A stretch of DNA of 44,377 nt from Rhodobacter viridis. GTDB taxonomy: Bacteria; Pseudomonadota; Alphaproteobacteria; Rhodobacterales; Rhodobacteraceae. Below the pieces are notes generated by a model. It worked only from the letters and a program-made list of their open reading frames with translations. It ran no database searches and had not been told where the DNA came from. The position numbers and the translations under genes are program-made. Where the stretch lies: positions 1 through 44,377 of the forward strand of contig NZ_QJTK01000019.1 of assembly GCF_003217355.1 (NCBI RefSeq). Direction: 5' to 3'. Of the stretch, positions 27,937 to 43,097 are shown one piece after another; within the stretch, counting starts at the first letter, position 1, and each line of letters begins with the position of its first letter.

Positions 27937-28784
27937 AGGGCTGTCAAGAGGTTTTATACGCGTCTCCTGCGCCTCACGTTGGTGCCTTTGCCACCTTGGT
28001 GCGTCCGTTCGTCAGGCAGAGGTTTCTCTTTGGCGGAGAATGGTTCGGAAAGCCGGATAGGGCGTGTTCCGAGTCTTCGGCATCATCGCATGCGCCAGCA
28101 ATATTTTGAGAATGCAAGCGCGGTTCATCGAAACCGACGTTCGAACGTAATGCAGCAAGACACTCTCATAGTCCTTTGCCGTCTGTCGTCCCGGAGCACG
28201 GCGTAAAAGTAGATATGTCCTGTCAGCCCAAATATTTCCTTTTTATACCCCATATTTTTCCTTTCGACAGGCAGCGTCTGGCCTTTCAGGGAAAACGGGT
28301 GGAAATGCTTCGATTGGGCGGGTGAAACGGCTCGATATGAGGTGACGGTGTGTCTCCAGCCACCTTCCAGGCTCTCTCGACGCAATCCTCCAGATGCTAT
28401 CTCTGAACGCGCCGCAGTGAATGAGAGAGAAGCCCTTCATCCCTGATCGTATGGAGCGTAGCGCGAATCTTGGCGCCGACGTCAAGGGCGGGGAGCAGGC
28501 CTGCGGCGGTGCGGCGCGGCTGTTGCAGAAATAAAGAGCGGCCATTCGCGCAAGCTTTTGAGTGAACTTGGCGATGTCGACATGGTCAGGCCCGAGCCGC
28601 TCCGGTCGCTCTTCTCGGGGCTGGGCCAGTGATCCTCATCCCGGACGCAGGAACCTGAACCTTCCTTCGGGAAAGCAGCCTCCGATCGCTCGCGCGCCTG
28701 TTCGCCATCTGTGACTGCGAAGGATTGACCCTGCGAGCGCGACTTGCGAGAGTCGCCCAATCTAACGAAACAGGCCCCCCTCAA
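27937..28784. other. 848-bp gap at the island edge, no confident gene
   Basis: Composition drops toward AT here (runs such as atatttcctttttatacccc). Two minus-strand frames, 28125-28385 and 28243-28545, look partly protein-like (for example HFHPFSLKGQTLPVE) but lack ribosome sites and family motifs I know. They could be decayed remnants of mobile genes. A hairpin GCGACT/AGTCGC at 28739-28756 lies just before dndC and may be an operator. No tRNA, integrase or dndB was found. Confidence 0.5.
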
Positions 28785-29948
28785 ATGTGCGAACCCAGAC
28801 TTGATGATCCGGCGGAAGCATCAATCGAAGATGCAATCCGGTCCATCGAAGCAGAAATGCGTGACGAATACCTTCAACCTCATGCATATCCGTGGGTCAT
28901 CGGTTACTCTGGCGGCAAAGACAGCACACTTGTTGTTCACTTGGCTTTCAACGTCCTCTTGGGACTTCCCAAGAGCCAGAGACGGCGAGAGGTGCATATC
29001 GTTTCGAACGATACACTCGTCGAAAGCCCTCTGGTGATCAAACACATCATCGACAGCCTCGATCAGATCAAAGAGGCGGCCGAGGCGCTGCGACTGCCCA
29101 TCAAGACCGCAATCACACGCCCCCCTACCTCACAGACATTCTGGGTCAACCTGATCGGGCGCGGGTATCCCTCGCCCAACCGAACGTTCCGCTGGTGTAC
29201 AGACCGGATGAAAATTCAGCCAACCAGCGGATACATCAAGTCCCGCATCGACGAGGCCCAGAACGTCATTCTGCTCCTCGGGGTTCGGAGGAGCGAGTCG
29301 GCAACCCGAGCGGCCTCGGTCAAGCGTTATGACAACGGCGAAAGGTTGAACCGGCATAACGATCTCGCCGGATGTCTGGTGTTTCGGCCTATCGTGGAAC
29401 TCACGACAGATGACGTCTGGGAGTATCTTGGCGAGTATGACGCGCCATGGGGCGGAGACCACCGGAAACTCCTGAAGCTCTATCGCGATGCTGGAGGTGG
29501 CGAATGCCCGGTGGTGACGCAGAAGTCAGATGCCCCCTCCTGCGGGAGTTCGTCGTCGCGCTTCGGGTGCTGGACTTGCACGGTCGTGGATAAGGACCGG
29601 AGCTTGGAGGGGTTTGTTGAATCGGGGTTTGCCGAGTTTGGCGCCCTACTGGACTTCAGGGACTGGCTGGTCTCGATCCGAAATGATCCGGAAAAACGTC
29701 AGGCACGCCGACGGAATGGCTCGATCACAATCACCAGCACAGGAACCTATGTGCCTGGCCCGTTCACAATGGACACCCGACATGAGATCCTTGACCGGCT
29801 GCTTCGGGTTCAGTCCGATCTTGGCACCGAACTTGTGTCGTATGAGGAAATCGAGGAGATTAAGCGGGTCTGGTCTGAAGAACTGACATCAAGTGCGTTC
29901 AGGCGCGCAAGCACAACTGTCGATACGATCAATAAGGATAGGGCATGA
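28785..29948 (+). CDS. dndC: DndC, DNA phosphorothioation sulfurtransferase (PAPS reductase-like)
   Basis: The 387-aa protein is a PAPS reductase/ATP pyrophosphatase-fold enzyme. The PP-loop SGGKDST is at residues 42-48. Four cysteines for a [4Fe-4S] cluster lie at about residues 240-265 (ECPVV...SCGSSSSRFGCWTCTVVDKD). DndC adenylates or activates the DNA backbone and supplies sulfur for phosphorothioate formation. ATG at 28785 is chosen at the family N terminus; the ribosome site is weak (AGG ten bases upstream), and the frame is open 20 codons further. It overlaps the next gene by 4 bp (ATGA). No dndB precedes it and no dndA is in the window. Confidence 0.93.
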   Translation: MCEPRLDDPAEASIEDAIRSIEAEMRDEYLQPHAYPWVIGYSGGKDSTLVVHLAFNVLLGLPKSQRRREVHIVSNDTLVESPLVIKHIIDSLDQIKEAAEALRLPIKTAITRPPTSQTFWVNLIGRGYPSPNRTFRWCTDRMKIQPTSGYIKSRIDEAQNVILLLGVRRSESATRAASVKRYDNGERLNRHNDLAGCLVFRPIVELTTDDVWEYLGEYDAPWGGDHRKLLKLYRDAGGGECPVVTQKSDAPSCGSSSSRFGCWTCTVVDKDRSLEGFVESGFAEFGALLDFRDWLVSIRNDPEKRQARRRNGSITITSTGTYVPGPFTMDTRHEILDRLLRVQSDLGTELVSYEEIEEIKRVWSEELTSSAFRRASTTVDTINKDRA

Positions 29949-30145
29949 CTCAGAACGTAGTCGTACTGCTGGACAATCCCGAGGGTAGATCCCTTGTTCG
30001 CGACGCGTGCATCGCGAACAAGATTATCTATCCAGAGTTTGTCGATCTAGTACAAGCCGAAGTTGATCAGACCGGAAAGCAGCGAAAAAAAGGTCTTTGG
30101 GATCAGTTCGACGACATTCTTGATCGTATAGAGTTCGGAGACTGA
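29945..30145 (+). CDS. Small protein associated with the DNA modification cluster
   Basis: A 66-aa protein (MTQNVVVLLDNPEGRSLVR...), mixed alpha/beta in appearance, no Cys-rich or membrane segment; it ends RIEFGD. I recall small proteins of this kind annotated only as DNA modification system-associated, sitting between dndC and dndD. Its ATG overlaps the dndC stop and dndD begins 4 bp after its end, so it is translated within the dnd operon. Its role is unknown: an adaptor or regulator of the DndCDE complex is a guess from position. Confidence 0.75.
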   Translation: MTQNVVVLLDNPEGRSLVRDACIANKIIYPEFVDLVQAEVDQTGKQRKKGLWDQFDDILDRIEFGD

Positions 30146-30149
30146 TTTA

Positions 30150-32228
30150 ATGCACTTGAAAAGCATTGTATTGCGAGATTGGAAAGCCTACGCTGTCGCC
30201 TCCTTCGATTTTCCTGCCCCCACCAAGGATCGGAACATCATCCTTATAGGTGCGCAAAACGGATACGGAAAAACCTCTCTATTCGAGGCGATTGTTCTTG
30301 GACTTTTCGGACAAAGTGGCTTGCCGCTGGTGGCCAGGTCACCTTTTGCAAGTGACGATAAGCAGCGCCTTGCCACATCCTATAAGACATTCCTCGAGAA
30401 AGCGCTGCATCGCGGGGCATTGGATGCAGGGCGGAGTTCGTGTTCTGCGAAGTTAACCTTCGTTGACGATGGCGAAGAAATCGAAATCCAGCGCGTCTGG
30501 TATTTCAGTGAACGCGGCCAGTTCAAGCCTACGGATGAAGAAGTTAGGATATACGAGGGCTCAACGAAGAAAGTAGTTGGGCCGCGGACATCTGAAGATG
30601 TTGATGACCTTGAGTGGTACCGCGACTATATCGCCAAGAGGTTTCTTCCTTACTATCTTGCGGCATTCTTCTTGTTTGATGGTGAACAAGTTAGTGCTTT
30701 TGCCGAGCGCGAAATGGCTGCGCAGGTTCGCTCAGGTATCGAAGGTCTGCTCGGCATTCCCGTTCTTCGTGAACTCGCACAAGACCTGAGGGCATACGCC
30801 CGGGTAAGAAAGAGCGAGGTCAATAACGTCAGCGACAACACGATTGAGCGCATCGAACTTGAGCTCGACCATCTGAATTTCCAGAAAGCGAAGAAATCCG
30901 AACGTATTTCGCAGCTCGAGCCAGAGCACCTGACGCTGAAAGAACAGAGGGAGAGGCTGACGCGCGAGCTCGCCGGTTTCGGCGCCGGATCGCAAGCCCA
31001 ATATCAGGAGCAATACGAGAAGCTCAACAGGCTGCAACGCAGCGTGGAAGACGGGAAATCTCAACTGGAAACCCTGCTCGCTCAGGACATCGCGCTTGCC
31101 CTTTCCGGGCGCGGCCTGCGGGAGCAGCTCATGAAAACCCTTCAGGGCGAGATCATCCGTGAAAAATGGGTTGCCGGGCGCCAGCAGGGTGACAACAACC
31201 TCGAACGCTATGTGGAGAGCGTACGGAGCTCTTTGGATAGGGTTCAGCCGCATCTCGAACCTATGCAGCGGGATGCCGTTGTTTCCATTGCGCGAGAGGC
31301 TTGGGAGTCTCTTTGGAGCCCGCCGCCAGACGGAATGGCTGGTGAAATCGTTCATACCTATTTGAATGAAATTGACCGGGTGAAAGTGGTAGAGAAGATC
31401 GACGGATTGGACATGCTCGGTGCGCCTCAGGTCGTCGAGTTACTCGATCAGATTTCCGCAGATGAAGATGCACAATATAAACTGCAGCAAGAAATCACAC
31501 GGACAGAAACGATCACCCCACACATCGACAAGAAGAAAAGCGATCTGAATGCAGTGCATGGCCGCCTGAGTGAAGTCGATCAGGAACTGGGTGCTCTTCG
31601 CCGAGAGGTGGTCGTTTACGACGCGGACATCGCGAAGAAGAACGCTGAGCTTTCCAAATTGTCCGGCCAATGGGATCAGGCCAAGCCCTCGTTGCGCCGC
31701 GCCAGTCGCGCTCTGAAGGTCGCGTCGATGGTGGACACCATCGTCGGACAAGCCGTTCCGAGCCAGATCAATGCTGTTGCAAAAGCAATGACAGACGCTC
31801 ATCGCTCCATGGCGCACAAGAAGGATCTGGTCAGCCGCATAGAAATCACGGACGAGTGTGAAGTTCGGCTTCTGAACGCGCAGGGTATCGACCTTCGAAA
31901 TTTCGACCTTTCGGCGGGGGAAAAGCAGATCTTCACACAGGCGCTTATTTCCGCCGTCGCATCAGTCTCACAACGTTCTTTCCCAATGGTCATTGATACG
32001 CCACTTGGCCGCCTCGATGTCGCACATAGAAACGGGGTGCTGCGGCATCTCGTTCAACGCGGTCATCAGATCATTCTTTTGACCACGAACACCGAAGTGG
32101 TCGGAGAGTACTTGGATGCGATAGAGCCGCATGTGCAGAAAAAATACCTTGTCTCCTTCGAAAGGGTTGGTGACATCGGTGTTTCGTCCGTCAGTGAGGG
32201 GTATTTCAGCAATGGGGCGCGCGCATGA
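30150..32228 (+). CDS. dndD: DndD, SMC/Rad50-like ATPase of DNA phosphorothioation
   Basis: The 692-aa protein has an SMC/Rad50-type split ATPase. Walker A GAQNGYGKTS is at residues 34-43; a long coiled coil occupies the middle (about 215-300 and 440-530, e.g. ERISQLEPEHLTLKEQRERL); the ABC signature LSAGEKQ lies near residue 586 and Walker B MVIDTPLGRLD follows. DndD hydrolyses ATP and is thought to open or nick DNA so that DndC can modify it. It follows the 66-aa gene by 4 bp and overlaps the dndE fusion gene by 4 bp. Codon use includes AGA, ATA and many A/T third positions, unlike the nif genes. Confidence 0.93.
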   Translation: MHLKSIVLRDWKAYAVASFDFPAPTKDRNIILIGAQNGYGKTSLFEAIVLGLFGQSGLPLVARSPFASDDKQRLATSYKTFLEKALHRGALDAGRSSCSAKLTFVDDGEEIEIQRVWYFSERGQFKPTDEEVRIYEGSTKKVVGPRTSEDVDDLEWYRDYIAKRFLPYYLAAFFLFDGEQVSAFAEREMAAQVRSGIEGLLGIPVLRELAQDLRAYARVRKSEVNNVSDNTIERIELELDHLNFQKAKKSERISQLEPEHLTLKEQRERLTRELAGFGAGSQAQYQEQYEKLNRLQRSVEDGKSQLETLLAQDIALALSGRGLREQLMKTLQGEIIREKWVAGRQQGDNNLERYVESVRSSLDRVQPHLEPMQRDAVVSIAREAWESLWSPPPDGMAGEIVHTYLNEIDRVKVVEKIDGLDMLGAPQVVELLDQISADEDAQYKLQQEITRTETITPHIDKKKSDLNAVHGRLSEVDQELGALRREVVVYDADIAKKNAELSKLSGQWDQAKPSLRRASRALKVASMVDTIVGQAVPSQINAVAKAMTDAHRSMAHKKDLVSRIEITDECEVRLLNAQGIDLRNFDLSAGEKQIFTQALISAVASVSQRSFPMVIDTPLGRLDVAHRNGVLRHLVQRGHQIILLTTNTEVVGEYLDAIEPHVQKKYLVSFERVGDIGVSSVSEGYFSNGARA

Positions 32229-33769
32229 CCATTTCTGTCGTAGATGTCGCTGGTGCCAACTTCCGGACAGACGAAGCGTCTGACGAGTTGAACTCCGAGT
32301 TCATGAAGCGCCTCGGTATGAAGAAACGCTACTTGCCAGCCCGCCTTGCGTTGTCGCGCTCGCTTGGGGTGCCCATGATTCCGGAGCCAATTGCTGCCGA
32401 TGCTGATTGGGGAAAGACGATTAAGGGTGACACCTTTTTTGGGACCGGCGCAGATCTGATGTCTTGGATTGCACTCGTCGTGCAGCACAATCCAGATCAG
32501 GAATACGATCTGAAGACACTCGTGGCCGCAGTTGCCGCACACTGGCGACGCGGCCTCAGGCTCCTTGATGCGGATTGGAAACAAAGCGGCGAAGACATTT
32601 CCAAGTTCGTCCGCACCCTTGTTGAACATGCCGAACTGCCATTGTCTGGCAGAATGAAGCTACGGGATCGCCCGCAGAAAATCGATGCATTCTCGAGTGT
32701 TGGATTGATCGCTGTTCCTGTGGGCGAAATATCGACGGAAGTGAATACCGGTGCCGAGGTCGAATGGAGCCTCAACGGACCGGGCTGTTCGCCTCATAGT
32801 GCCGTCATGGGCGGTGTCGGATCTGGCAAGACCAGAACGGCCGTCTCAATTCTCCGCGCCGTCCGCGCGTCCGCGCCTTTGCCGATAATCGCCTTTGACT
32901 TCAAGGGCGACCTCGCGACGGATGAGTCGGGCGGCGGCTATCACTTGGAGCAACTTTTCGATGCGACGGTTATTGAACCGCCGCGCATGCCCGTGCCGCT
33001 CGATGTGCTGGCGCTGCGCTCTCGCGATGAGATTGATCTTTCTCAAGGCGCATCGCGTTTCCGCGAGTCGTTCTCGCGCCTCAAGGGCGCCAGACTGGGA
33101 GACAAACAGCGGGACGCCGTCTACGAGGCCGCCTCGCGGGCATTGCGAACGCGAACCCCGTGCGAACTGGATGACTTCCAGTCCGAGTTGCTCAATGTTT
33201 ATGCCGAACGTGAGATAAAAGAGGACGGCGCGATCGCTGCCGCCCGGGAAGTCTGCCGTTTCCCGCTTTTTGCGCCAGAGTTGTCGCCTGAGGAGTTCTT
33301 CAAAAGGTCCTGGATCATCAAGCTTCCTCCGCATGTTGTGGAGGAGAGCCGGTCTATCGTCGTGAACCTCGTCCTTGATGCGCTTGATCAGTATCTGAAC
33401 AGTTTGCCAGACACGGCTGTGGCGGATGACGGAAGTCGCGGCATGCGTATCGTTGCGATGATTGACGAGGCGCATAGGATCTTGGGATCTCGGCTGCCAT
33501 CGCTTTCGAACCTTGTGCGCATGAGCCGGTCAAAGGGCGGTGCGGTCATGCTGATTTCGCAGAGCCCCGATGATTTCAGCGGGGAAGAGGATGACTTCCT
33601 GAGCGAGATGGGCCTTGTCGCAGCATTCTCAACGAACGCGCCATCGAAGGCCGCTGCACGAATTCTTGGACGCGGCGCCAACCTTGCAACGCTTTCTACG
33701 GGGCAGGCCTACGTCAAGAGGCGGAACGACAATGCTGCCCGCAAAGTTCAGTCATGGTCGACCAAGTAG
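32225..33769 (+). CDS. dndE: DndE fused to a HerA/FtsK-like ATPase
   Basis: A 514-aa two-domain protein. Residues 1-115 resemble DndE, the small nicked-DNA-binding subunit (EFMKRLGMKKRYLPARLALS). Residues 150-514 form a HerA/VirB4-type P-loop ATPase: Walker A GGVGSGKT at 196-203, a FDFKGD strand at 224-229 typical of HerA, Walker B IVAMIDEAH at 409-417, and a late Arg-containing ILGRGANLATLSTGQAYV segment. DndE is usually a stand-alone protein of about 110-130 aa; the fusion suggests a translocase working directly with the modification complex. Overlaps dndD by 4 bp. The ATPase part might replace the separate restriction-side ATPase DndH/DptH; that is inference. Confidence 0.85.
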   Translation: MTISVVDVAGANFRTDEASDELNSEFMKRLGMKKRYLPARLALSRSLGVPMIPEPIAADADWGKTIKGDTFFGTGADLMSWIALVVQHNPDQEYDLKTLVAAVAAHWRRGLRLLDADWKQSGEDISKFVRTLVEHAELPLSGRMKLRDRPQKIDAFSSVGLIAVPVGEISTEVNTGAEVEWSLNGPGCSPHSAVMGGVGSGKTRTAVSILRAVRASAPLPIIAFDFKGDLATDESGGGYHLEQLFDATVIEPPRMPVPLDVLALRSRDEIDLSQGASRFRESFSRLKGARLGDKQRDAVYEAASRALRTRTPCELDDFQSELLNVYAEREIKEDGAIAAAREVCRFPLFAPELSPEEFFKRSWIIKLPPHVVEESRSIVVNLVLDALDQYLNSLPDTAVADDGSRGMRIVAMIDEAHRILGSRLPSLSNLVRMSRSKGGAVMLISQSPDDFSGEEDDFLSEMGLVAAFSTNAPSKAAARILGRGANLATLSTGQAYVKRRNDNAARKVQSWSTK

Positions 33770-33774
33770 ATGGA

Positions 33775-33999
33775 CTATTTCTGGACCAGAAATTTGTGGC
33801 CGCCGTCAACAGCGGCGGTCTCAAGAAGCGTAAAGCCTAACTGGTTACACATGTGCGGGATGTCGATTTGTGCTACCGGATCAGTGGTCTCGATAAGCAG
33901 CTTTTGGCCGGCCGACATCTTCGCTAGCATCTTTTTCGCTTTGATCACGGGAATGGGGCAAAGGGTACCCTTTACATCGAGACGAAAATCGTGAGGCAT
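33775..33999 (-). CDS. TusA-family sulfur carrier protein
   Basis: A 74- to 75-aa TusA/SirA-fold protein with the signature CPxP (GTLCPIPVIKAKKML), whose Cys carries a persulfide. The fold pattern beta-alpha-beta-alpha-beta is complete and it ends GHKFLVQK. Two adjacent ATGs are possible (33997-33999 or 34000-34002); GGA lies 6 bp before the first of these in frame. TusA proteins receive sulfur from a cysteine desulfurase and hand it to a thiolation enzyme. It is convergent with the DndE fusion gene, only 5 bp apart. A role as sulfur relay for DndC is an inference from location; a general tRNA- or molybdopterin-thiolation role is the alternative. Confidence 0.85.
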   Translation of the reverse strand: MPHDFRLDVKGTLCPIPVIKAKKMLAKMSAGQKLLIETTDPVAQIDIPHMCNQLGFTLLETAAVDGGHKFLVQK

Positions 34000-34214
34000 C
34001 ATGTATCCGATTACTAGTCAGATGACTTGCATCCATACCGCAGGCCACCACGGTTCGCGAAGCCTTTCGTGCCTGTAAGAGTAAGCGACTGAACGCGCAA
34101 TGCAAGATTGCGCCGCCCCCAAGATCGACGGACGGTAATGCGCGAAACGGCCATTAGAGCGCGCTACGGCAATGCGAATGAGAAGCCCAAAGCTTCAGGT
34201 AGCCCGCTATCAGA

Positions 34215-34287: not shown

Positions 34288-35086
34288 AGTTCGCCCTGAA
34301 CAACCCGATCACGTCGGCTCGGCGATCTGATTGCGACCCTCGTCGCCCCTCATCGCCGCGATGAACAGCGCGATCAGGCGCACCAATACAGCCCGCAGCC
34401 AGGCCAGGATCTTGCGGATATTGTGCCCGCAGCCGCACAACACCGCGAAGAGGGCGTCGCCGATCGTGCCTTTCAGCGGGCTTCGGGCAAGACGGCCGTC
34501 GGTCTTCATGTGGCCGATTTCAGGCTCTATCGCCGCCCGCCTCCGCAAGTCGGCGGCCAAGGCCGGGGTCAGACCGCGCCGGGTGCCGCTGATCAGAACC
34601 TGGGTCTTATCGACGCCATGGCCGCGATAGCCGCGGTCGACCACCACCAGTTCGGGCAGTCGCTCGGTCAGGATTTCAACCTGCTCAAGCGCGGCGCCCA
34701 AGGTGTGACCGTCGTAAGGATTGCCCGCAAAGCTGCGCATGCCAACGACGAAACGTGTGCTGCAGATAGAGCAGCCCGGCGACCATCCGGGGCGGCGTGG
34801 CCGGACGGCCGGTGCCCGAGGGGAAGAACCCGGACCATTGGCGCTCGAACACGTCCCAGTCGATCAGCGCGGCGAGTTTCACCAACTCGTGGCGCGGGTC
34901 GATCATGTCGATCAGACGCGGGCGCAGCAGGTCGTCTTGTTCCGGCGGGCGGGAGCGATGCTTCATGCGACGGACCGAATTTGCAGGGTTTCGAGCGAAA
35001 TCATAGGAAACCCTGCAGGCGAGGGCGAGAAAAACCGCCAGTTCTGCGCAGGAAATCAGGGGCTTCGCCGTTGTTCAGGGCGAACT
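34288..35086 (-). mobile_element. IS5-family element, copy 1, internally deleted
   Basis: A 799-bp element with terminal repeats AGTTCGCCCTGAACAAC at both ends, flanked by AATG on each side (34284-34287 and 35087-35090). Against the intact copy next to it, about 688 bp are missing, with the junction near 34752-34762 at a short GACGAAAC-like homology. The two copies differ at scattered bases, so they are not a fresh duplication. The boundary choice is uncertain by a few bases because CTAATGAG recurs at each junction. Confidence 0.85.
34309..34966 (-). pseudogene. IS5-family transposase, internally deleted and frameshifted
   Basis: The first about 75 codons (MKHRSRPPEQDDLLRPR... up to LLYLQHTFR) join out of frame to the last about 143 codons (MRSFAGNPYDGHTLGAALEQ...). 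The 688-bp deletion is not a multiple of three and removes the first catalytic Asp. It cannot make active transposase but retains both ends, so it could be mobilised by the intact copy. Confidence 0.9.
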
Positions 35087-35090
35087 AATG

Positions 35091-36577
35091 AGTTCGCCCT
35101 GAACAACCCGATCACGCCACCTCGGGGATCTGATTGCATCCTCCTTCGCCCCTCATCGCCGCGATGAACAGCGCGATCAGGCGCACCAATACTGCCCGCA
35201 GCCAGGCCAGGATCTTGCGGATATTGTGCCCGCAGCCGCAAAGCACCGCGAAAAGCGCATCGCCGATCGTGCCTTTCAGCGGGCTTCGGGCAAGACGACC
35301 GTCGGTCTTCATGTGGCCAATTTCGGGCTCGATCGCCGCCCGCCTCCGCAGATCGGCCGCCAATGCCGGGGTCAGACCGCGCCTCGTGCCGCTGATAAGC
35401 ACCTTGGTTTTGTCGACGCCGTGGCCGCGATAGCCGCGGTCAACAACCACCAGTTCGGGCAGGCGCTCGGTCAGGATTTCCACCTGTTCAAGCGCGGCGC
35501 CCAGCGTGTGACCGTCGTAAGGATTGCCCGCAAAGCTGCGCATGCCGACGACAAAACCCTCGTCGAGCGTCGTGGCGATGCTGACCTTGCAGCCGAATTC
35601 ATACCGCACCCGCGCCTTGCCTTTGGAAATGCAGTCGACCTCGGGTTCGTGCAGGGCATAGATCTTGTCGCGCCCTTTCGGCTCTTGGCTCAGCAGTTTC
35701 GAGACCAGGACCAACCGGTCGAGGATGCGCTCGCGCAGCTCCCCTTCGGGGATATCGTCAAGCTGGCGGCGCAGGTCGCGCAGCACCCTTCCGGTATAAC
35801 CTTTCAACGTTCTCAACGCCTTGCGCATGCGCTTGAACTGCTTGGCATGGGCGTAACGGCCAACGCGCACTGCCAGACGCGGGGCGAGGCGGGCATAGCT
35901 CTGGCGCAGCTCCACCCCGGCCTCGGCGGCCAGCGCCACCAGCTGCACCCGCGCCCGTTCGTAAAGCCGGGCGTCGGTGGGATGCGCGATGGTCTTTTCC
36001 ATGACGGTGGTGTCGACCGCCACCCGCTTCAGGCTGCCCGCATCGATCGCCCCGGCTTTCTGTCCGGCCAGGATCGTCTGCGTCAGCATCCATTCCACCC
36101 CTTCCTCCCCAATCCGCTGCCGCCAACGGGTCAGCGACGAAGGGTCAATCGGCGGGCGATGCTGAAAGAACGTCTCGCCGGTGAAGTGCTGATAGTAAGG
36201 GTTTTCGACCCAACGCGCGACGACGGCCTCGTCCGAGAGTCGAAACGCGTGCTGCAGATAGAGCAGCCCGGCGACCATCCGGGGCGGCGTGGCCGGGCGG
36301 CCGGTGCCCGAGGGGAAGAACCCGGACCATTGGCGCTCGAACACCTCCCAGTCGATCAGCGCGGCGAGTTTCACCAACTCGTGGCGCGGGTCGATCATGT
36401 CGATCGGGCGCGGGCGCAACAGGTCGTCTTGTTCCGGCGGGCGGGAGTGATGCTTCATGCGGCGGACCGAATTGCAGGGTTTCGAGCGGAATCATAGGAA
36501 ACCCTGCAGGACATGGCGAGAAAAACCGCCTATTCCAAGCGCCAAATCAAGGGCTTCGCGGTTGTTCAGGGCGAACT
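35091..36577 (-). mobile_element. IS5-family element, copy 2, intact
   Basis: A 1,487-bp element with 18-bp terminal inverted repeats AGTTCGCCCTGAACAACC, flanked by AATG at 35087-35090 (shared with copy 1) and 36578-36581. It carries one full-length transposase. A 4-bp target duplication fits the IS5 family; if CTAA rather than AATG is the duplicated target, each boundary moves by 3 bp. Confidence 0.9.
35112..36458 (-). CDS. IS5-family transposase
   Basis: The intact 448-aa DDE transposase. The N-terminal DUF772-type region (DPRHELVKLAALIDWEVFE, then AFRLSDEAVVARWVENPYYQ) is followed by the RNase H-like DDE domain with Asp in VAVDTTVMEKT, Asp in VVVDRGYRGHG and Glu in IEPEIGHMKTD. The C terminus CGCGHNIRKILAW is typical. 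It occupies nearly the whole element and reads toward the dnd cluster. Its GC-rich codon use resembles the host core rather than the surrounding island, suggesting arrival from a similar genome. Confidence 0.95.
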   Translation of the reverse strand: MKHHSRPPEQDDLLRPRPIDMIDPRHELVKLAALIDWEVFERQWSGFFPSGTGRPATPPRMVAGLLYLQHAFRLSDEAVVARWVENPYYQHFTGETFFQHRPPIDPSSLTRWRQRIGEEGVEWMLTQTILAGQKAGAIDAGSLKRVAVDTTVMEKTIAHPTDARLYERARVQLVALAAEAGVELRQSYARLAPRLAVRVGRYAHAKQFKRMRKALRTLKGYTGRVLRDLRRQLDDIPEGELRERILDRLVLVSKLLSQEPKGRDKIYALHEPEVDCISKGKARVRYEFGCKVSIATTLDEGFVVGMRSFAGNPYDGHTLGAALEQVEILTERLPELVVVDRGYRGHGVDKTKVLISGTRRGLTPALAADLRRRAAIEPEIGHMKTDGRLARSPLKGTIGDALFAVLCGCGHNIRKILAWLRAVLVRLIALFIAAMRGEGGCNQIPEVA

Positions 36578-36673: not shown

Positions 36674-38086
36674 GTGAGGGAAATTTCTGTAACCCGGTTC
36701 AACGCAATTGCCGGCTACGCCCGACACCCGAGGGCGGTGCTGACGGGGGAAGAATTAGCCTACTACGAGGCCGATGATGGGAGCATCCTCGGCCTGCTCA
36801 TCAGGGACCGAGCAGACCGTGATTTTGCGGGAATGGCCTTTGGCCCGGACGCGAAACTGCGCTTCCGGTGGACGTCCATGACTGATTTCTTCGAGAGCCG
36901 CGAGCTGGCACACGACGCTTTGGAGAAACTGATTACCAGCTTACTCGATGAACCGGACGAGTTTCATCACCAAGGTGATGAAAAGGGTGAGCCAGTCGAT
37001 TTCTTCACTCCGGTACACTCACCAGAAGTTTTGCACCCAGACTTCCAGCAGGTCGCGTCTGAGCTTGGATTTTTTCCTGCCCGGGGCATAATCGAACACA
37101 TGATGCGGTGGCACGAAGATCTCGATGGAAACTTTGTAGAGCAATTCCAGTCCACCGCTTTCGATCAGCGGATTTGGGAGCTTTACCTTTTTGCGATGCT
37201 CATAGAACTCGGGTTTTCCCTGGACGCGACGCATGCTGTGCCAGACTTCATTGGAACAAGCTTGTTCGGGTCAATCGCCATTGAAGCGGTGACGGTTGGG
37301 CCGACCCGGCGAGGTGCCGAACTCGTTCCGCCGCCGCCCGTTGAGACCGAGGAACAGATGGAAGCTTATCTTCGAGATTATATGCCCATCAAGTTCGGCA
37401 GCCCGTTGTTCAGCAAGCTGCGGAACAAATACTGGGACAAGAAGCAGATCGCGGGTATGCCACTGGTGTTTGCAATAGCGGATTTCTCATCGCCCGGCTC
37501 CATGATCCATACCCGACCCGCGCTCGAGCGATATCTCTACGGGTACTCCTTTGATGCGGTGCGCGACGAGCAAGGAAGAACCGTAGCGGAACCCGTAAAA
37601 ATCATCGAGCACCGATGGGGGGACAAGGTGATACCTTCCGGTTTCTTTAATATTCCGGAATCGGAAAATATTAGCGCCATTATCTCCACCACCGCGGGCA
37701 CGATTTCAAAATTCAATCGAATGGGGATTCTGGCCGGGTTCGATGCGGGCGACGTTTTGATGATTCGTACTGGAACTCTTGTGGATATCGACCCCGAAGC
37801 GACGAGCCCGCTGCTCTTTGAGGCGATTGTAAACGCCAAAGGGTACCATGAGAGTTGGGTAGAAGGGCTCAATGTCTATCACAATCCGCGCGCCATCATT
37901 CCGCTTGCGGAACATATCATACCTGGGGCTGCGCATCACCATTGCGACGCGGAAGGCAACTGGACGACAACCGCTCCACGCTTCCATCCTCTAGCATCGA
38001 GTACAAAAATACTAGGCGGCGTAAATGTGGCTAAAGCGCTCGCAGATTTTGAAGGTTCGGCGATTCGTTTCGGGAGAATAAACTAG
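36674..38086 (+). CDS. Putative PD-(D/E)XK-type nuclease, probably missing its 5' end
   Basis: A 470-aa soluble protein read from GTG 36674, which has AAGGGA six bases upstream. I do not recognise the family. Residues 166-207 look like a restriction-endonuclease core: a helix with E169 (RIWELYLFAMLIELGF), then P190-D191 (VPDFIG), then E204 in IAIEAVTV; the usual Lys is absent, as in some divergent members. The same frame is open back through the IS boundary with no start codon, and those 32 codons read plausibly as protein (PWQPAFNLRWYGNIID just before KAKGFDV). The IS pair therefore probably removed the true start. Convergent with the methyltransferase operon; could be its nuclease or part of the dnd locus. 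Confidence 0.6.
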   Translation: MREISVTRFNAIAGYARHPRAVLTGEELAYYEADDGSILGLLIRDRADRDFAGMAFGPDAKLRFRWTSMTDFFESRELAHDALEKLITSLLDEPDEFHHQGDEKGEPVDFFTPVHSPEVLHPDFQQVASELGFFPARGIIEHMMRWHEDLDGNFVEQFQSTAFDQRIWELYLFAMLIELGFSLDATHAVPDFIGTSLFGSIAIEAVTVGPTRRGAELVPPPPVETEEQMEAYLRDYMPIKFGSPLFSKLRNKYWDKKQIAGMPLVFAIADFSSPGSMIHTRPALERYLYGYSFDAVRDEQGRTVAEPVKIIEHRWGDKVIPSGFFNIPESENISAIISTTAGTISKFNRMGILAGFDAGDVLMIRTGTLVDIDPEATSPLLFEAIVNAKGYHESWVEGLNVYHNPRAIIPLAEHIIPGAAHHHCDAEGNWTTTAPRFHPLASSTKILGGVNVAKALADFEGSAIRFGRIN

Positions 38087-38196: not shown

Positions 38197-39252
38197 CTAG
38201 GACGAATGAGCCTCTATAACCGCCTGAAATACTGCTTTTGCGAGCAACGGAGGAACGGCGTTCCCCACCTGCTGTTGGCGAAGCCCTATGGATCCTTTAA
38301 ACACAAAGTTGTCCGGGAACGACTGGAGCCTCGCAGCCTCGCGCACAGAGAGGCCCCGGTGCTCATGCGGGTGGATCAACATGTTTTTCCTGAAGTTTCC
38401 GATCACCACGGAAGGCTTTTCAGGATCAAGACGGCGATAGATGCCCGTGTGGCACCGCGTGCGATCCTTGTAGCTTGCCATCATCTCCTCAGGGATGTCG
38501 GCCCAGTTTCCACCTTTCGGTATGAAGGGATAGCGATCGACGATATGGTCCGCATTGCGCGTGACGATGTGACCGCTACATTCGTTCAGCCCGTTTCGCA
38601 TGGTGCGCGCATAATCGGACCGCGCCTCGGAAGCGTAAGTCAAGACATCAACATTTGAGCCATTGGTGAGCACCGGAAGATCGTGAATCGCCTCGTCGAC
38701 AGATACCTTGGGTAAGTCGCCGCCAGACGGCAGTGACGGAGGGATCGCGCCGAGACGCCCGATAATGAAAAAACGGCTTCGCGACTGCGGAACACCGAAA
38801 TCCGCCGCGTTCAGAACTCCTTCTTCACAACGATAACCAAGCTTCTCGAGGTCCTTACGAATCTCTCTGGCGAAAAGACCACCTTCCGTTTCTAAGATCC
38901 CGCGCACGTTCTCGAATATGACCCAAGCAGGTTTCGTCCGCTTTACAAATGCGACAAAAGCCCGAAACATCCAGTTTTTTTTGTTGTCCGCCGACCGCGT
39001 CCGCTGATTTGAAGTGGAAAATCCTTGGCAGGGCGGGCCTCCGAATACGATCAGATCGTCCGCAGGAAAGGGCGTCGCAAGATTCTGTAGGTGTTCCACC
39101 CCCATCTGAAGCACGGTGCATTCTGGATGATTGTATCGATAGGTTTCGAACGCGGCGTGGTGCATCTCAACGGCAATTTTCGTATCCACACCCGCCATAT
39201 TGGCGCCAAGAGACATCCCGCCTGCCCCAGCGAACAAATCAATGCCAATCAC
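38197..39252 (-). CDS. DNA (cytosine-5-)-methyltransferase
   Basis: A 351-aa m5C methyltransferase. Motif I is IDLFAGAGGMSLG (residues 4-16), motif IV GGPPCQGFS with catalytic C75 (71-79), motif VI ENVRG (114-118), motif VIII QSRSRFFIIG (about 155-164), and motifs IX-X near the end (ARLQSFPDNFVF, QVGNAVPPLLAKAV). The target-recognition region between VIII and IX is of ordinary size, and the specificity cannot be read. The GTG start overlaps the stop of the upstream gene (GTGA). It is the last gene of a four-gene operon; no adjacent classical restriction enzyme is on its strand. It probably marks self DNA for this operon. Confidence 0.93.
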   Translation of the reverse strand: MIGIDLFAGAGGMSLGANMAGVDTKIAVEMHHAAFETYRYNHPECTVLQMGVEHLQNLATPFPADDLIVFGGPPCQGFSTSNQRTRSADNKKNWMFRAFVAFVKRTKPAWVIFENVRGILETEGGLFAREIRKDLEKLGYRCEEGVLNAADFGVPQSRSRFFIIGRLGAIPPSLPSGGDLPKVSVDEAIHDLPVLTNGSNVDVLTYASEARSDYARTMRNGLNECSGHIVTRNADHIVDRYPFIPKGGNWADIPEEMMASYKDRTRCHTGIYRRLDPEKPSVVIGNFRKNMLIHPHEHRGLSVREAARLQSFPDNFVFKGSIGLRQQQVGNAVPPLLAKAVFQAVIEAHSS

Positions 39253-40256
39253 TGCGATCGGCCCTCATTGTCTAATGCAGCGAGCCGGGCCACGGTGTGA
39301 GCGCGAATTGTACCCAAAGTGAAAGTCAAAAAGCAATCTGAAGGGGTAGCATATTTCAGATTGTAGATAACAGCCGGCGCATAGCAAATCTGCCACTCAG
39401 GCTTTAGGCGAGCCAGAACACCAATCGCTGCAGTGGAAATCTTACTATTCAGCGGCGCGAGGAGAACGTTGCTGGTCGTATCCTGCAGCACGTTGATCAA
39501 TGCGTCGACCGCCCCAAACGGGTCAAGCGCGGGATAATCGAAAGTTGTACCATTTCGTGTGTCCAAGAGCTTCTGAGCGATGCCCCGGTTCTTCTCTGCA
39601 CTCCAAGCGTGCCGTTCGCCGACTGGGCAAGCGATCCCCACGATCAACTGGTCTGGCTCGATCTCCTCGACCATCCTGCGCATCCGCTCGGAATCGAACC
39701 CAGGAAGCGCGACAAGCTTGGTCTGTTCGCCTGGCGACCATGCGCCGGGAAAGCCGACCACGGACCGAACCTGATGGATTCCGCGACTGATCCACTTGTT
39801 TGCAGGTAGTTCGTCAACAGAATAGGCACTTGCCAAGTTGTAGATGAGGTTCAGGTCGCGCCAAGGGGTGATGATTTCGTCGGCCGCTGCCACTAGGATG
39901 AGCAGCATCTCGTGGGTCATGGTGGTGATGTCGGCGATCCAGTCGAAGCTATTATCTGGCGCGGCCTTTTTGGCTAGGTCAACGAACGCATCCGCGAGTA
40001 GCAGCGGATTCTGCTTCGACGCCTTCAGGTACTCGATCGCGACGCCTGCCTTGGCCGCAATAGTCTCAGCCCTGTCGCGAATGGAACTGATGTCAGTCTC
40101 GATGTCCTCGTTGACAATGATGAGCCAGCGACTCAGCCTGAATGACGGGATCGCCTCCGCTACAGTGAGACTTCGATCTTCGAAACTCATGCAGCTTATT
40201 AGGGCAACAGGTCGTTGCATCTGCTCCGCGAGGGCCTCTCGTGTGACTTCACGCAT
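39249..40256 (-). CDS. Unknown 335-aa protein, Rossmann/CARF-like features
   Basis: No family recognised with confidence. Residues 16-75 show a beta-alpha-beta pattern starting VALISCMSFEDRSLTVAEA and WLIIVNEDIE; residues 105-130 read DWIADITTMTHEMLLILVAA, which recalls the D-[IL]-T-x2-T segment of CARF-type nucleotide sensors. The second half has further alternating strands (LIVGIACPVGERHAW, SNVLLAPLNSK, PEWQICYAPAVIYNL), suggesting a second Rossmann-like lobe. GGAGG five bases before the ATG is a strong ribosome site. It overlaps the ATPase gene by 8 bp and the methyltransferase gene by 4 bp. Possible roles are ligand sensing or effector; both are speculation. Confidence 0.7.
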   Translation of the reverse strand: MREVTREALAEQMQRPVALISCMSFEDRSLTVAEAIPSFRLSRWLIIVNEDIETDISSIRDRAETIAAKAGVAIEYLKASKQNPLLLADAFVDLAKKAAPDNSFDWIADITTMTHEMLLILVAAADEIITPWRDLNLIYNLASAYSVDELPANKWISRGIHQVRSVVGFPGAWSPGEQTKLVALPGFDSERMRRMVEEIEPDQLIVGIACPVGERHAWSAEKNRGIAQKLLDTRNGTTFDYPALDPFGAVDALINVLQDTTSNVLLAPLNSKISTAAIGVLARLKPEWQICYAPAVIYNLKYATPSDCFLTFTLGTIRAHTVARLAALDNEGRSQ

Positions 40257-42039
40257 CGGAACCTCCGTCAGGGAAGTTAATCGTCATCTGTTGCTCATCA
40301 CGGCGTGCGCGACTGCGCCGTAGACCGAGCCGCGCTTCCTCCGGGTTATTCATCAGCAGATTCACATGGCGATTAGAGAGGAATTTGTAGGCGGAGAAGC
40401 CCATAGGATCTAGATTGTAAAGCGGCGCCAACCGGCGGCTGAGGATGAAAAGCGGAGCTCTACCCGTCCCCTCTTTGCGTCCGATCACGCCTTGAAAAAG
40501 GTAGCCGTAGCGAACGCCCAGCCGCAGTACCTCTTCAATCTCTCGCGTTGGTTCCTCTGATAATGCGAAGCTGAACAGCTTGCGCTCAGCCGCATCCTCG
40601 TTGATCAAAGCACTCTCAAAGATCGAGCCCAATCCCTTGATCAGGTTGCTGAGTTGGACGGCTTGCTGTGGATCACCTTTCAGCCGCTGAACGTCCCGCT
40701 CGAGATCCTTGAGGTCCACGATCATCTGTCGGTTCGCGTGCTCTCGCACGACTTCGTTCTGTATGCGAGGCTCAATTTCCCCAACGACCTTATTCCCGTG
40801 CGGCATTAGCACCACCGACTTGGAATACATGTCGGCGGCAGCCTCCAAGAAGAACCGGGTTACGCCCGAGGAAATGTGAACGAGCTGATCGAAACCGCTA
40901 TAGCTGTAGGTGCTGCGACTTTTCCGATCTCCACCTAACTTCGTGATGTAGTTTGGCCGCGCATAACGATAGGCATCGTCACGCGCGCGATATCCCCGCC
41001 CATGTCCGGCTTCCCACTCCGCCACGAGACGGCGCTCCTCCCGCTCGATCGCGATGCGCTGCCGGTTGTCCTCAGGGAAGTACTTGTCGGCCGATTTTAC
41101 GACGCCTACAGCGTTCAACCGCCGCTGCACGATCCCTGCGATGCGGCTCTTGTAAGCCTTTTCACTTGCTCGGCTAGTGGCATCGGAAAGGTTGATCTCC
41201 TGATAATCATGGGGCGCCTCTATCCGGGTATTGTACACCGTGACCATCGTCTTGTAGGCGGTGATCTGTGCGGCAATCTTGAGGCTGCAACGGCTGGATA
41301 GACGGCGCGCCACCCAAGAATTAATGATCCGAGTCTGCGTCTCTGTCAGACTGTCGGCATCGTCGAGCAGCAGCAGAATGGGCGAAGTTTCTTGGATTCG
41401 GAGCGCGGCGCGAAGAAAGTCGATTAGCGGTAGCAGAAGGTCATCGAAGCCGTAGAGTTCGCCATTGTATGCCAGAGTCTCCGACATAAAGCCGTGCTTG
41501 CGCACATATTGGATTGCGCTACGATAGGCAGCCTGAAGCCGGGAAGCCATCGCTTTAAGGGCTTCTCCAACGTTTACAGACGGGTCAAAGACGTCTCCAC
41601 CAAGCAGTTTGGACAATTCTTCGTGTAGCTCTCTCGCCGAAGGGCTCAACTTGTCGGTAGCAATGTTATTGTTCCGAAGCAACCGCAGGACGACCTGCGC
41701 GCCGATGGCGAGGACGAGTAGATGTTCATTGAAAAAGACTTCGCCATGATGATTATCAAAGCGTGCAAGCTCGCTGATCTGCGCCTGCGTCTCCCGGAAT
41801 GAAACGTAAAGAGACAAGAATGGGAGTTCGTTCAACGCCATATTCGTGACAAGTCGTTGACAGTCGGGCTCGAGGTATCGAAGGAGGATGCTCTTTCCCG
41901 AACCGCGCGTGCCAATTACGAAGGCATGACCCGCGCTCTCGATATTCCCCAATCCCGGCATCTCGGTAGAGAAGATCGCGACCACTCGATCGGCAGTAAG
42001 GCCTTCGGGCGTAAAGACTGCGAACGGATTGTTGATCAT
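40249..42039 (-). CDS. AAA+/ORC-CDC6-like P-loop ATPase
   Basis: A 596-aa ATPase. Walker A GTRGSGKS lies at residues 43-50 and Walker B ILLLLDDADS at 221-230, followed by a sensor-like strand (LKIAAQITAY). The N terminus MINNPFAVFTPEGLTADRVV and the short distance to the P-loop resemble ORC/CDC6-like ATPases that I recall in predicted prokaryotic conflict systems. The C-terminal 250 residues are helical, with a region like a winged helix near 500-560 (EVLRLGVRYGYLFQGVIGRK). Overlaps the HD gene by 4 bp and the 335-aa gene by 8 bp. A switch that senses invading nucleic acid or a cofactor is inferred. Confidence 0.8.
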   Translation of the reverse strand: MINNPFAVFTPEGLTADRVVAIFSTEMPGLGNIESAGHAFVIGTRGSGKSILLRYLEPDCQRLVTNMALNELPFLSLYVSFRETQAQISELARFDNHHGEVFFNEHLLVLAIGAQVVLRLLRNNNIATDKLSPSARELHEELSKLLGGDVFDPSVNVGEALKAMASRLQAAYRSAIQYVRKHGFMSETLAYNGELYGFDDLLLPLIDFLRAALRIQETSPILLLLDDADSLTETQTRIINSWVARRLSSRCSLKIAAQITAYKTMVTVYNTRIEAPHDYQEINLSDATSRASEKAYKSRIAGIVQRRLNAVGVVKSADKYFPEDNRQRIAIEREERRLVAEWEAGHGRGYRARDDAYRYARPNYITKLGGDRKSRSTYSYSGFDQLVHISSGVTRFFLEAAADMYSKSVVLMPHGNKVVGEIEPRIQNEVVREHANRQMIVDLKDLERDVQRLKGDPQQAVQLSNLIKGLGSIFESALINEDAAERKLFSFALSEEPTREIEEVLRLGVRYGYLFQGVIGRKEGTGRAPLFILSRRLAPLYNLDPMGFSAYKFLSNRHVNLLMNNPEEARLGLRRSRARRDEQQMTINFPDGGSDA

Positions 42040-43097
42040 GCCCGCTCCTTCTCCGCTGTGACTATGAGCCGCTCAAGGTACGCAGGAGTCAGCTTTCCAT
42101 TGCCATTATATGCGCAGAGTTCTGGCGCCATCTCATAGATGCTCAAACACTGGTCACCGTAACCATGCTCCGCAATGGTGTAAACAATGTTGTGGAGCGG
42201 CTCCAATCGGTCGTCGAAGATCATGATGTCGACCTTGACCCGCTCGAACTCAAGGTACGGGCGCATGAACCGCGAGCAATAACGCGCCTCGTTGAACGTC
42301 TTCATCGATCGGTCAAAAATTTCTTCAAGTAGGTAAACCTGTCCTTCCCCCTTTCCAAGTTTCCGCTTAAAAAGGTCGGGATCATGGAACGTGAAATTCA
42401 GCGTTATTTCGCGAGAACCAATGTCCGGCATTTGCGAGTGGAGGCCGGAGGCAACGACATGATAAATTTCCGATTCTGGAGGCAGCGCTCCTGCCGCTAA
42501 TTGGACGCGATTGGCACGCGCGGGATCATCTGCCAACTCATCGGCAAGTCGCAGAATGGCGGAGAGCAACCGGAGGCGCACGTGCTCGCCGTAAACTGCC
42601 GGTTTTTCTTGAAGAGTCGAGATAGTGTCCTTCGACCCATTCACAAGACCGCCATGCACACCTGCAATCTGCTTAGCAGTCGCATATTCGATCTGATCAA
42701 CTGGTAGATTAGCTCCGGCTGCAGTCAGCACCTCGTGGATTCGCCGCTCATGCCCAGTCCGCCCAAGGATGTTCCCTATGTCATGCAAGTAGATAGCGAT
42801 CAAAAGTAGAGTGAGTTCGTAATGGGTGAGATCGATCGAACTGGACTGGGCAATGAGATTCGACGCGACCTGTCGAACCCGCGCGACATGTTCGCGATCG
42901 TGCATCGTCAGATGGCCGCGGCCGTCTAAGGCAATCGCGCCAGCGGTCACGTAAGGAAGCAAAAACGCCTCAAGTTGCCCTATCCAACCGTGAACTACTG
43001 TAGGGTAATCCAAGGCTCCACTCCGGGGAAAACTGTTCTTCTTGCGAGCGAACTCTGCTGTAATTTCCTGCAGTATGTCGTTGCCAACTAGATTCAT
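42036..43097 (-). CDS. HD-domain phosphohydrolase-like protein
   Basis: A 353-aa protein with a metal-dependent HD domain. Candidate ligands in order: H66 (TMHDREH), H105-D106 (YLHDIGN), H116 (TGHERRIHE), H148 (GVHGG) and D186 (ILRLADELADD). This pattern fits a nucleotide or cyclic nucleotide phosphohydrolase, or a nuclease-like HD effector. The C-terminal 150 residues (LNFTFHDPDLFKRKLGKG..., IMIFDDRLEPLHNIVY) form a separate domain I do not recognise. The ATG has GAGGGTG upstream. It is the first gene of the four-gene operon, with its promoter presumably in the 390-bp gap upstream, where I see no strong sigma-70 boxes. Confidence 0.85.
   Translation of the reverse strand: MNLVGNDILQEITAEFARKKNSFPRSGALDYPTVVHGWIGQLEAFLLPYVTAGAIALDGRGHLTMHDREHVARVRQVASNLIAQSSSIDLTHYELTLLLIAIYLHDIGNILGRTGHERRIHEVLTAAGANLPVDQIEYATAKQIAGVHGGLVNGSKDTISTLQEKPAVYGEHVRLRLLSAILRLADELADDPARANRVQLAAGALPPESEIYHVVASGLHSQMPDIGSREITLNFTFHDPDLFKRKLGKGEGQVYLLEEIFDRSMKTFNEARYCSRFMRPYLEFERVKVDIMIFDDRLEPLHNIVYTIAEHGYGDQCLSIYEMAPELCAYNGNGKLTPAYLERLIVTAEKERA

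What the first reader, a model, noticed from the sequence alone, without database searches (positions are those of the whole stretch)
38197..43097. Four-gene operon: HD protein, ORC-like ATPase, unknown Rossmann-like protein, m5C methyltransferase
Four minus-strand genes overlap by 4, 8 and 4 bp, so they are made together. An HD phosphohydrolase, an AAA+ ATPase with Walker A/B, a 335-aa protein of no recognised family and a C5 methyltransferase form a set I cannot match to a named restriction, BREX, DISARM, CBASS or Thoeris system. Position in a defence-like island next to dnd genes and IS elements supports a phage or plasmid defence role. A model: methylation marks self, the ATPase and the unknown protein sense non-self, and the HD protein makes or removes a nucleotide signal or cuts nucleic acid.
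Basis: partly seen in the sequence, partly recalled or inferred. Interest (0 to 1): 0.85.

Follow-up and report, generated by a model that had tools for sequence, protein, structure and literature searches.

The report
HD–ATPase–CARF–methylase phage-defence cassette
Four overlapping bacterial genes form a travelling gene set, found in several phyla, that probably defends against phages by destroying nucleotides, and in some lineages a gene for making thymidylate, a DNA building block, sits right against it, which hints at what is destroyed.

The parts
42036..43097 (-). HD-CE protein, 353 aa; predicted metal-dependent nucleotide (phospho)hydrolase, the likely effector
   Evidence: Pfam PF24391 82.8 bits against cut-off 27; 44 of 44 scanned members, window included, match; H66, H70, H105, D106, R113, H116, H148, D186, E187, R194 invariant in 50 of 50; model pLDDT 94.4, resembles Ppx/GppA and cyclic-nucleotide phosphodiesterases
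40249..42039 (-). ORC-CDC6-like ATPase, 596 aa
   Evidence: Pfam PF24389 333 bits against cut-off 27; Walker A G-x-R-G-x-G-K-S and Walker B D-D-A-D conserved at 90% or more in the alignment of 56
39249..40256 (-). Tandem CARF protein (PADLOC CARF6), 335 aa, no effector domain; predicted ligand sensor
38197..39252 (-). Cytosine-C5 DNA methyltransferase, 351 aa, the best conserved of the four
   Evidence: PF00145 202 bits; mean pairwise identity 54% against 31-38% for the three partners; residues 226-298, between the motifs I take as VIII and IX, are at 90% or more identical in 30 of 73 columns, against 10 of 60 in 166-225 and 39 of 165 in 1-165
36674..38086 (+). Neighbour, not part of the cassette: PD-T7-1 anti-phage protein, convergent with the cassette
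   Evidence: PADLOC PDLC04073 E=2.3e-180
28725..33769 (+). Neighbour: DndC (28725-29948), DndD/PbeC ATPase (30150-32228), DndE-HerA fusion (32225-33769)
   Evidence: PADLOC, NCBIfam and Pfam

Best explanation
A mobile four-gene anti-phage module. Step 1 (inferred): the m5C methyltransferase marks a DNA site, perhaps the same one in all carriers, in the host. Step 2 (inferred): the ORC-CDC6-like ATPase with the tandem CARF protein forms the sensor and gate, reading foreign or unmodified DNA and/or a small nucleotide ligand. Step 3 (inferred; the enzyme class rests on tool results): the released or activated HD-CE enzyme hydrolyses cellular nucleotides and stops phage replication, perhaps with the cell. 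Step 4 (association shown, role inferred): in some lineages an added ThyX or ThyA replenishes dTMP, which points to thymidine nucleotides as what is lost. The window copy is intact but has no linked thymidylate synthase.
For: 48 of 61 non-redundant loci hold all four genes (gathered mostly with the ATPase, so this counts partners given the ATPase). Sequence distances of the four proteins correlate over 45 cassettes (Mantel r 0.56-0.87, 0 of 999 permutations as high). The gene immediately upstream of the ATPase codes for HD-CE here, PRTase-CE in L041, L046 and L049, a calcineurin-like enzyme in L044, with CARF6 next to the ATPase in each of these. HD-CE metal residues invariant in 50 of 50. Thymidylate synthase abuts the cassette in 11 of 57 loci, gaps -10 to +33 bp, with no other match to the two query enzymes among the ORFs of the loci searched (seven of the 11 confirmed by Pfam); 74 of the 166 other flanking proteins were scanned and show no Pfam family in more than 3; 1 of 2 complete cassettes found afterwards has it; 8 of 9 genomes checked hold a second thymidylate synthase elsewhere. 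Own genome: no match to the Csm1 or SMODS models.
Confidence: 0.55

Rival explanations
1. Restriction-modification-like system: the methyltransferase protects one site, the ATPase-CARF complex finds unmethylated DNA and the HD protein cuts it.
For: A methyltransferase is present in all 48 complete loci of 61 and its probable recognition region is well conserved; Vsr genes, which repair m5C deamination (recalled), lie 28 to 1098 bp from four cassettes (L008, L057, L103, L105); weak Cas3 HD match of the HD protein (E 0.038).
Against: No restriction endonuclease family reached in the four window proteins; HD fold closest to Ppx/GppA and phosphodiesterases of small nucleotides; PRTase-CE, by its name not a nuclease, stands in the same place in related loci; thymidylate synthase link unexplained.
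Confidence: 0.17
2. HD-CE is not the effector but an off switch: a phosphodiesterase that degrades the CARF ligand, like ring nucleases in type III CRISPR.
Against: No synthase for such a ligand in the cassette, and no Csm1 or SMODS match in the genome; then no effector remains; PRTase-CE at the same place would not be expected to cleave a phosphodiester (from the family name).
Confidence: 0.12
3. Selfish maintenance module: the cassette stabilises plasmids and other mobile elements by killing cells that lose it (the methyltransferase as antidote).
For: Found on 4 plasmids and 5 contigs of the viral collection, of which 4 are complete and one lacks HD and methyltransferase; patchy distribution.
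Against: Sits in a defence island in the window and near other defence-type genes in some relatives; four genes with an ATPase and a CARF sensor are more than such modules need (judgement).
Confidence: 0.1

Closest known systems
Predicted nucleotide-targeting immune systems with HD-CE, PRTase-CE and Calcineurin-CE effectors (Nicastro et al. 2023, doi 10.1093/nar/gkad879; not held, seen only as a reference entry in PMC12839542; content recalled)
   Same: HD-CE and ORC-CDC6-like are Pfam families that the window proteins meet over the cut-off; PRTase-CE and a calcineurin-like enzyme occur beside related ATPase-CARF pairs.
   Different: I could not read whether that paper shows this four-gene set, the CARF identity of the third protein or the thymidylate synthase link.
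CARF6 family of the CARF classification (Makarova et al. 2020, recalled; not held; seen only as PADLOC model names)
   Same: Window protein PDLC01917 E=3.6e-108, 53 of 53 members scanned; fold of 6sce/Csm6/Csa3.
   Different: No CRISPR or cyclase gene in the four-gene cassette; no fused effector domain.
Clover (CloA dGTPase + CloB; PMC12265719, passages read)
   Same: An HD enzyme lowers the nucleotide pool and is controlled by thymidine-type nucleotides.
   Different: CloA is an octameric dNTPase with a nucleotidyltransferase partner; here HD-CE with ATPase, CARF and methyltransferase, no nucleotidyltransferase in the cassette.
BREX / Type II restriction-modification
   Same: DNA methyltransferase plus an ORC/Cdc6-type ATPase (BREX: PMC12839542, passages read).
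   Different: No PglZ, BrxC or restriction endonuclease match among the PADLOC matches shown for the four cassette proteins; the methyltransferase is a small m5C enzyme.

Membership tests
HD-CE (PF24391) | Score over the curated cut-off and an intact HD metal centre | tested here: met
   82.8 bits against 27; residues invariant in 50 of 50
HD-CE (PF24391) | Nucleotide-degrading activity | not testable with these tools
   Predicted only (recalled from Nicastro et al. 2023); needs an enzyme assay
ORC-CDC6-like (PF24389) | Score over cut-off, Walker A and B | tested here: met
   333 bits against 27; motifs conserved in the alignment of 56
CARF superfamily (CARF6) | Profile match and CARF fold | tested here: met
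CARF superfamily (CARF6) | Binds a cyclic oligoadenylate | not testable with these tools
   No match to Csm1 (TIGR02578) or SMODS (PF18144) in the window genome; other synthases not searched
Type III CRISPR accessory | Linked to Cas10 with CRISPR array | tested here: inconclusive
   No Csm1 match in the genome and no cas family over cut-off among the eight window proteins scanned; Cmr2 and CRISPR arrays were not searched for
Type II restriction-modification | Cognate restriction endonuclease next to the methyltransferase | tested here: inconclusive
   No endonuclease family reached by the four proteins and none recurrent among 74 flanking proteins of relatives; the HD protein as a nuclease is not excluded (Cas3 E 0.038)
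BREX | PglZ, BrxC and the other BREX genes | tested here: not met
   No BREX model among the PADLOC matches shown for the four cassette proteins; of eight window proteins scanned only the neighbouring DndC touches one (BrxP, 50 bits)
C5 cytosine methyltransferase (PF00145) | Catalytic motifs and over cut-off | tested here: met
   202 bits against 22; PCQ, ENV and Q-x-R-x-R present (motif roles recalled)

The most novel reading that the evidence does not exclude
A defence system that starves phage of thymidine nucleotides: a tandem-CARF and ORC-type ATPase gate, tied to a fixed m5C self-mark, releases an HD enzyme that destroys thymidine (or closely linked pyrimidine) nucleotides, while a dedicated extra thymidylate synthase, apparently recruited several times as either of two unrelated enzymes, keeps the host alive or resets the pool.
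Probability: 0.28. Interest if true: 0.82.

Novelty: new variant of a known kind. Interest (0 to 1): 0.6.

Why it matters
CARF sensors are known mainly from type III CRISPR and related signalling (recalled; review passages). Here a stand-alone tandem CARF without any effector domain is tied to an ATPase and a DNA methyltransferase in bacteria of eight named phyla, and in the window's genome no Csm1 or SMODS synthase was found that could make its ligand. The repeated presence of ThyX or ThyA turns a vague 'nucleotide-targeting' prediction into a direct test: measure dTTP. If true, it would join DNA self-marking (restriction-like) with nucleotide starvation (dNTPase-like) in one system.

Tried and rejected
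A viral scan with the window CARF protein alone found no relatives. PDB sequence searches gave nothing usable for the CARF or ATPase profiles (the low-E CARF hits were stretches of about 18 residues in designed SAKe proteins). The HD PDB hits are weak (best E 0.013). The phage collection gave one partial ATPase match (19% of the query).

Rows dropped before counts: L101 (Paracoccus), only fragments of the ATPase remain; same-contig duplicates L090, L072, L104; L009 and L011 are two parts of one plasmid record and were counted once; L043 and L044 are 99.98% identical over 11716 bases and were counted once. L007, L086 and L087 are over 90% identical in the ATPase but were kept as three loci. In one search proteins covering under 80% of the profile were left out. 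Alignment A4 took 53 of the 60 non-duplicate CARF proteins then listed; the structure alignments A6 and A7 hold 51 and 44 rows. For the Pfam scan of neighbours I gave 74 of the 166 flanking proteins that are not thymidylate synthases, chosen near the cassette.

An adenylosuccinate synthetase beside L098 and the dGTPase-type HD gene near L041 are single cases and were not used. 'Thy genes are merely an insertion site' was considered and judged unlikely: 8 of 9 genomes checked have another thymidylate synthase elsewhere, and the linked genes lie on either side of the cassette and in either orientation. No statement is made that the thymidylate link is unpublished: searches did not show it in their listings, but the two most relevant papers are not held.

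Full report
What is there. Four complete minus-strand genes lie at 42036-43097, 40249-42039, 39249-40256 and 38197-39252, with overlaps of 4, 8 and 4 bp. The stretch is lower in G+C (0.549) than window bases 1-27900 (0.657). Around it lie DndC, a DndD/PbeC-type ATPase and a DndE-HerA fusion, PD-T7-1, TusA and a DUF772-type transposase.

The cassette is real. Of 67 loci put through the count, 66 had an ATPase over the threshold. After removing three duplicates and merging two pairs, 61 remain; 48 have all four genes on one strand: 42 as MT-HD-ORC-CARF, four as HD-ORC-CARF-MT (the window, L053, L063, L067), one with HD split by an inserted gene (L054) and one spanning the start of a plasmid record (L009/L011). 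Of the 13 others, five are cut by a contig end (L057, L066, L085, L089, L102), three carry another candidate effector (L010 kinase fused to the ATPase, L041, L043/L044) and five with flanks held lack HD-CE or the cassette-type methyltransferase (L045, L056, L074, L078, L082). Most loci were gathered by the ATPase, so the count says how often the partners go with it, not the reverse. Among sampled genomes the ATPase is rare at E <= 1e-20: 4 of 395 (class of L075's genome, that genome included), 2 of 369 (class of L064's genome, included), 1 of 151 (family of L087's genome) and 1 of 196 (the window's order), the last two being only the query genome. Named loci come from Pseudomonadota, Bacteroidota, Acidobacteriota, Gemmatimonadota, Planctomycetota, Verrucomicrobiota, Bacillota and Thermodesulfobacteriota (labels). 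Distances of the four proteins over 45 complete cassettes correlate (r 0.87 ATPase-CARF, 0.86 HD-ATPase, 0.76 HD-CARF, 0.71 CARF-MT, 0.62 ATPase-MT, 0.56 HD-MT; 0 of 999 permutations reached any of these). Shared descent alone would also give such correlations; they show joint inheritance, not contact.

The place beside the ATPase. In related loci the gene immediately upstream of the ATPase, on its strand, codes for PRTase-CE (L041, L046, L049) or a calcineurin-like phosphoesterase (L044; L043 is the same DNA); in L010 a protein kinase is fused to the ATPase. The CARF proteins of L010, L041, L044, L046 and L049 all match CARF6 profiles, and their ATPases match ORC-CDC6-like (L010; L044, L046, L049; L041). 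The ATPase-CARF pair thus looks like a chassis with exchangeable effectors. From recall, HD-CE, PRTase-CE and Calcineurin-CE were named by Nicastro et al. 2023 as predicted nucleotide-degrading conflict effectors; I saw that paper only as an entry in a reference list.

The methyltransferase. It is better conserved (54% mean pairwise identity) than its partners (31-38%). Residues 226-298, part of the stretch that usually holds target recognition (recalled), have 30 of 73 columns at 90% identity or more, against 10 of 60 in residues 166-225 and 39 of 165 in 1-165. I read this as one shared target site, unlike ordinary restriction systems, whose recognition parts diversify (recalled); it is an inference. 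Vsr genes lie within 1.1 kb of four cassettes (L008, L057, L103, L105) and 4.7 kb from the L045/L072 one.

Thymidylate synthase. Clustering 177 flanking proteins gave two leading families, ThyX (7 loci) and ThyA (4 loci), confirmed for the seven scanned by Pfam PF02511 or PF00303. All 11 abut the cassette, with gaps of -10 to +33 bp, in 755 kb of flanks of 57 loci, and no other match to the two query enzymes lay among the ORFs of the loci searched, window included. Of 74 other flanking proteins scanned (of 166) no Pfam family occurs in more than three, the commonest being a transposase domain. Of two complete cassettes found afterwards, one (L128) begins with thyA overlapping the methyltransferase gene, the other (L129) has none. 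On the ATPase tree (58 rows, quick method without mixture model) presence of a linked synthase needs at least 8 changes, gains or losses; three of the seven ThyX loci (L007, L086, L087) are near copies. Eight of nine genomes checked hold another thymidylate synthase elsewhere; G660, a draft assembly, shows only one. The catalytic motifs are kept: PCH and PFN in 5 of 5 ThyA, the RHR motif in 7 of 7 ThyX (motif meanings recalled). Against the simplest reading: 46 of 57 loci and the window have no linked synthase, and L078 has thyA but no HD gene.

How it likely works. Shown: a conserved, patchily spread set with an intact-looking HD hydrolase, an intact-looking ATPase, a tandem CARF protein and an m5C methyltransferase, sometimes with an adjacent thymidylate synthase. 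Inferred: the methyltransferase marks self; ATPase and CARF sense and gate; HD-CE breaks down nucleotides. No match to Csm1 or SMODS was found in the genome, so a signal made by those two kinds of synthase is unlikely there; other synthases were not searched.

Literature. Passages were read in PMC12839542, PMC4012209, PMC12265719, PMC10853773 and PMC9704534. Not held: Makarova et al. 2020 on CARF classes, Burroughs and Aravind 2020, Nicastro et al. 2023. One search listed two papers, one unrelated and one (PMC12839542) that names CARF only in its references. The public annotation of two relatives calls the HD, ATPase and CARF proteins hypothetical.

Verdict. It is a variant of a predicted but, as far as I could read, untested kind of defence; the thymidylate synthase link makes the effector's target directly testable.

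Noticed in passing
window 28725-33769: DndC, a small ORF (29945-30145), DndD/PbeC-like ATPase and a DndE-HerA fusion; PMC10853773 (passage) describes HerA fused to DndE beside a DndD-related ATPase.
   Followed up: partly
window 33775-34002 (-): A TusA sulfurtransferase gene (PF01206) directly after the dnd-type genes; it might feed sulfur to the modification.
   Followed up: partly
window 34309-36458 (-): A transposase gene (35112-36458, DUF772 and DDE_Tnp_1) and beside it two ORFs whose sequence repeats its start and end, apparently a broken second copy.
   Followed up: no
L101 9989-10800: Paracoccus mutanolyticus chromosome holds fragments about 80% identical to the window ATPase, next to transposase-like ORFs: a decayed relative.
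   Followed up: no
L046 6838-13581, L049 6667-14443: PRTase-CE, ORC-CDC6-like ATPase and CARF6 in a row with further genes that by eye look like SIS, PfkB and NADAR proteins (names recalled, not from a call).
   Followed up: no
L010 7104-12504: Kinase fused to the ORC-CDC6-like ATPase, CARF6 next, and a DruA gene on the other strand.
   Followed up: no
L041 5345-12030: HD phosphohydrolase with HD_assoc domain (dGTPase-like), then PRTase-CE, ATPase, CARF and a protein matching N6 DNA methylase.
   Followed up: partly
G000:C12:97233-97835 (locus L121): The window genome has a divergent thymidylate-synthase-like gene (PF00303, E 5e-27) besides a ThyX on another contig; what it does is unknown.
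   Followed up: no
L082 2208-10718: ATPase-CARF pair without HD or m5C methyltransferase, after genes that by eye look like type I restriction subunits.
   Followed up: no
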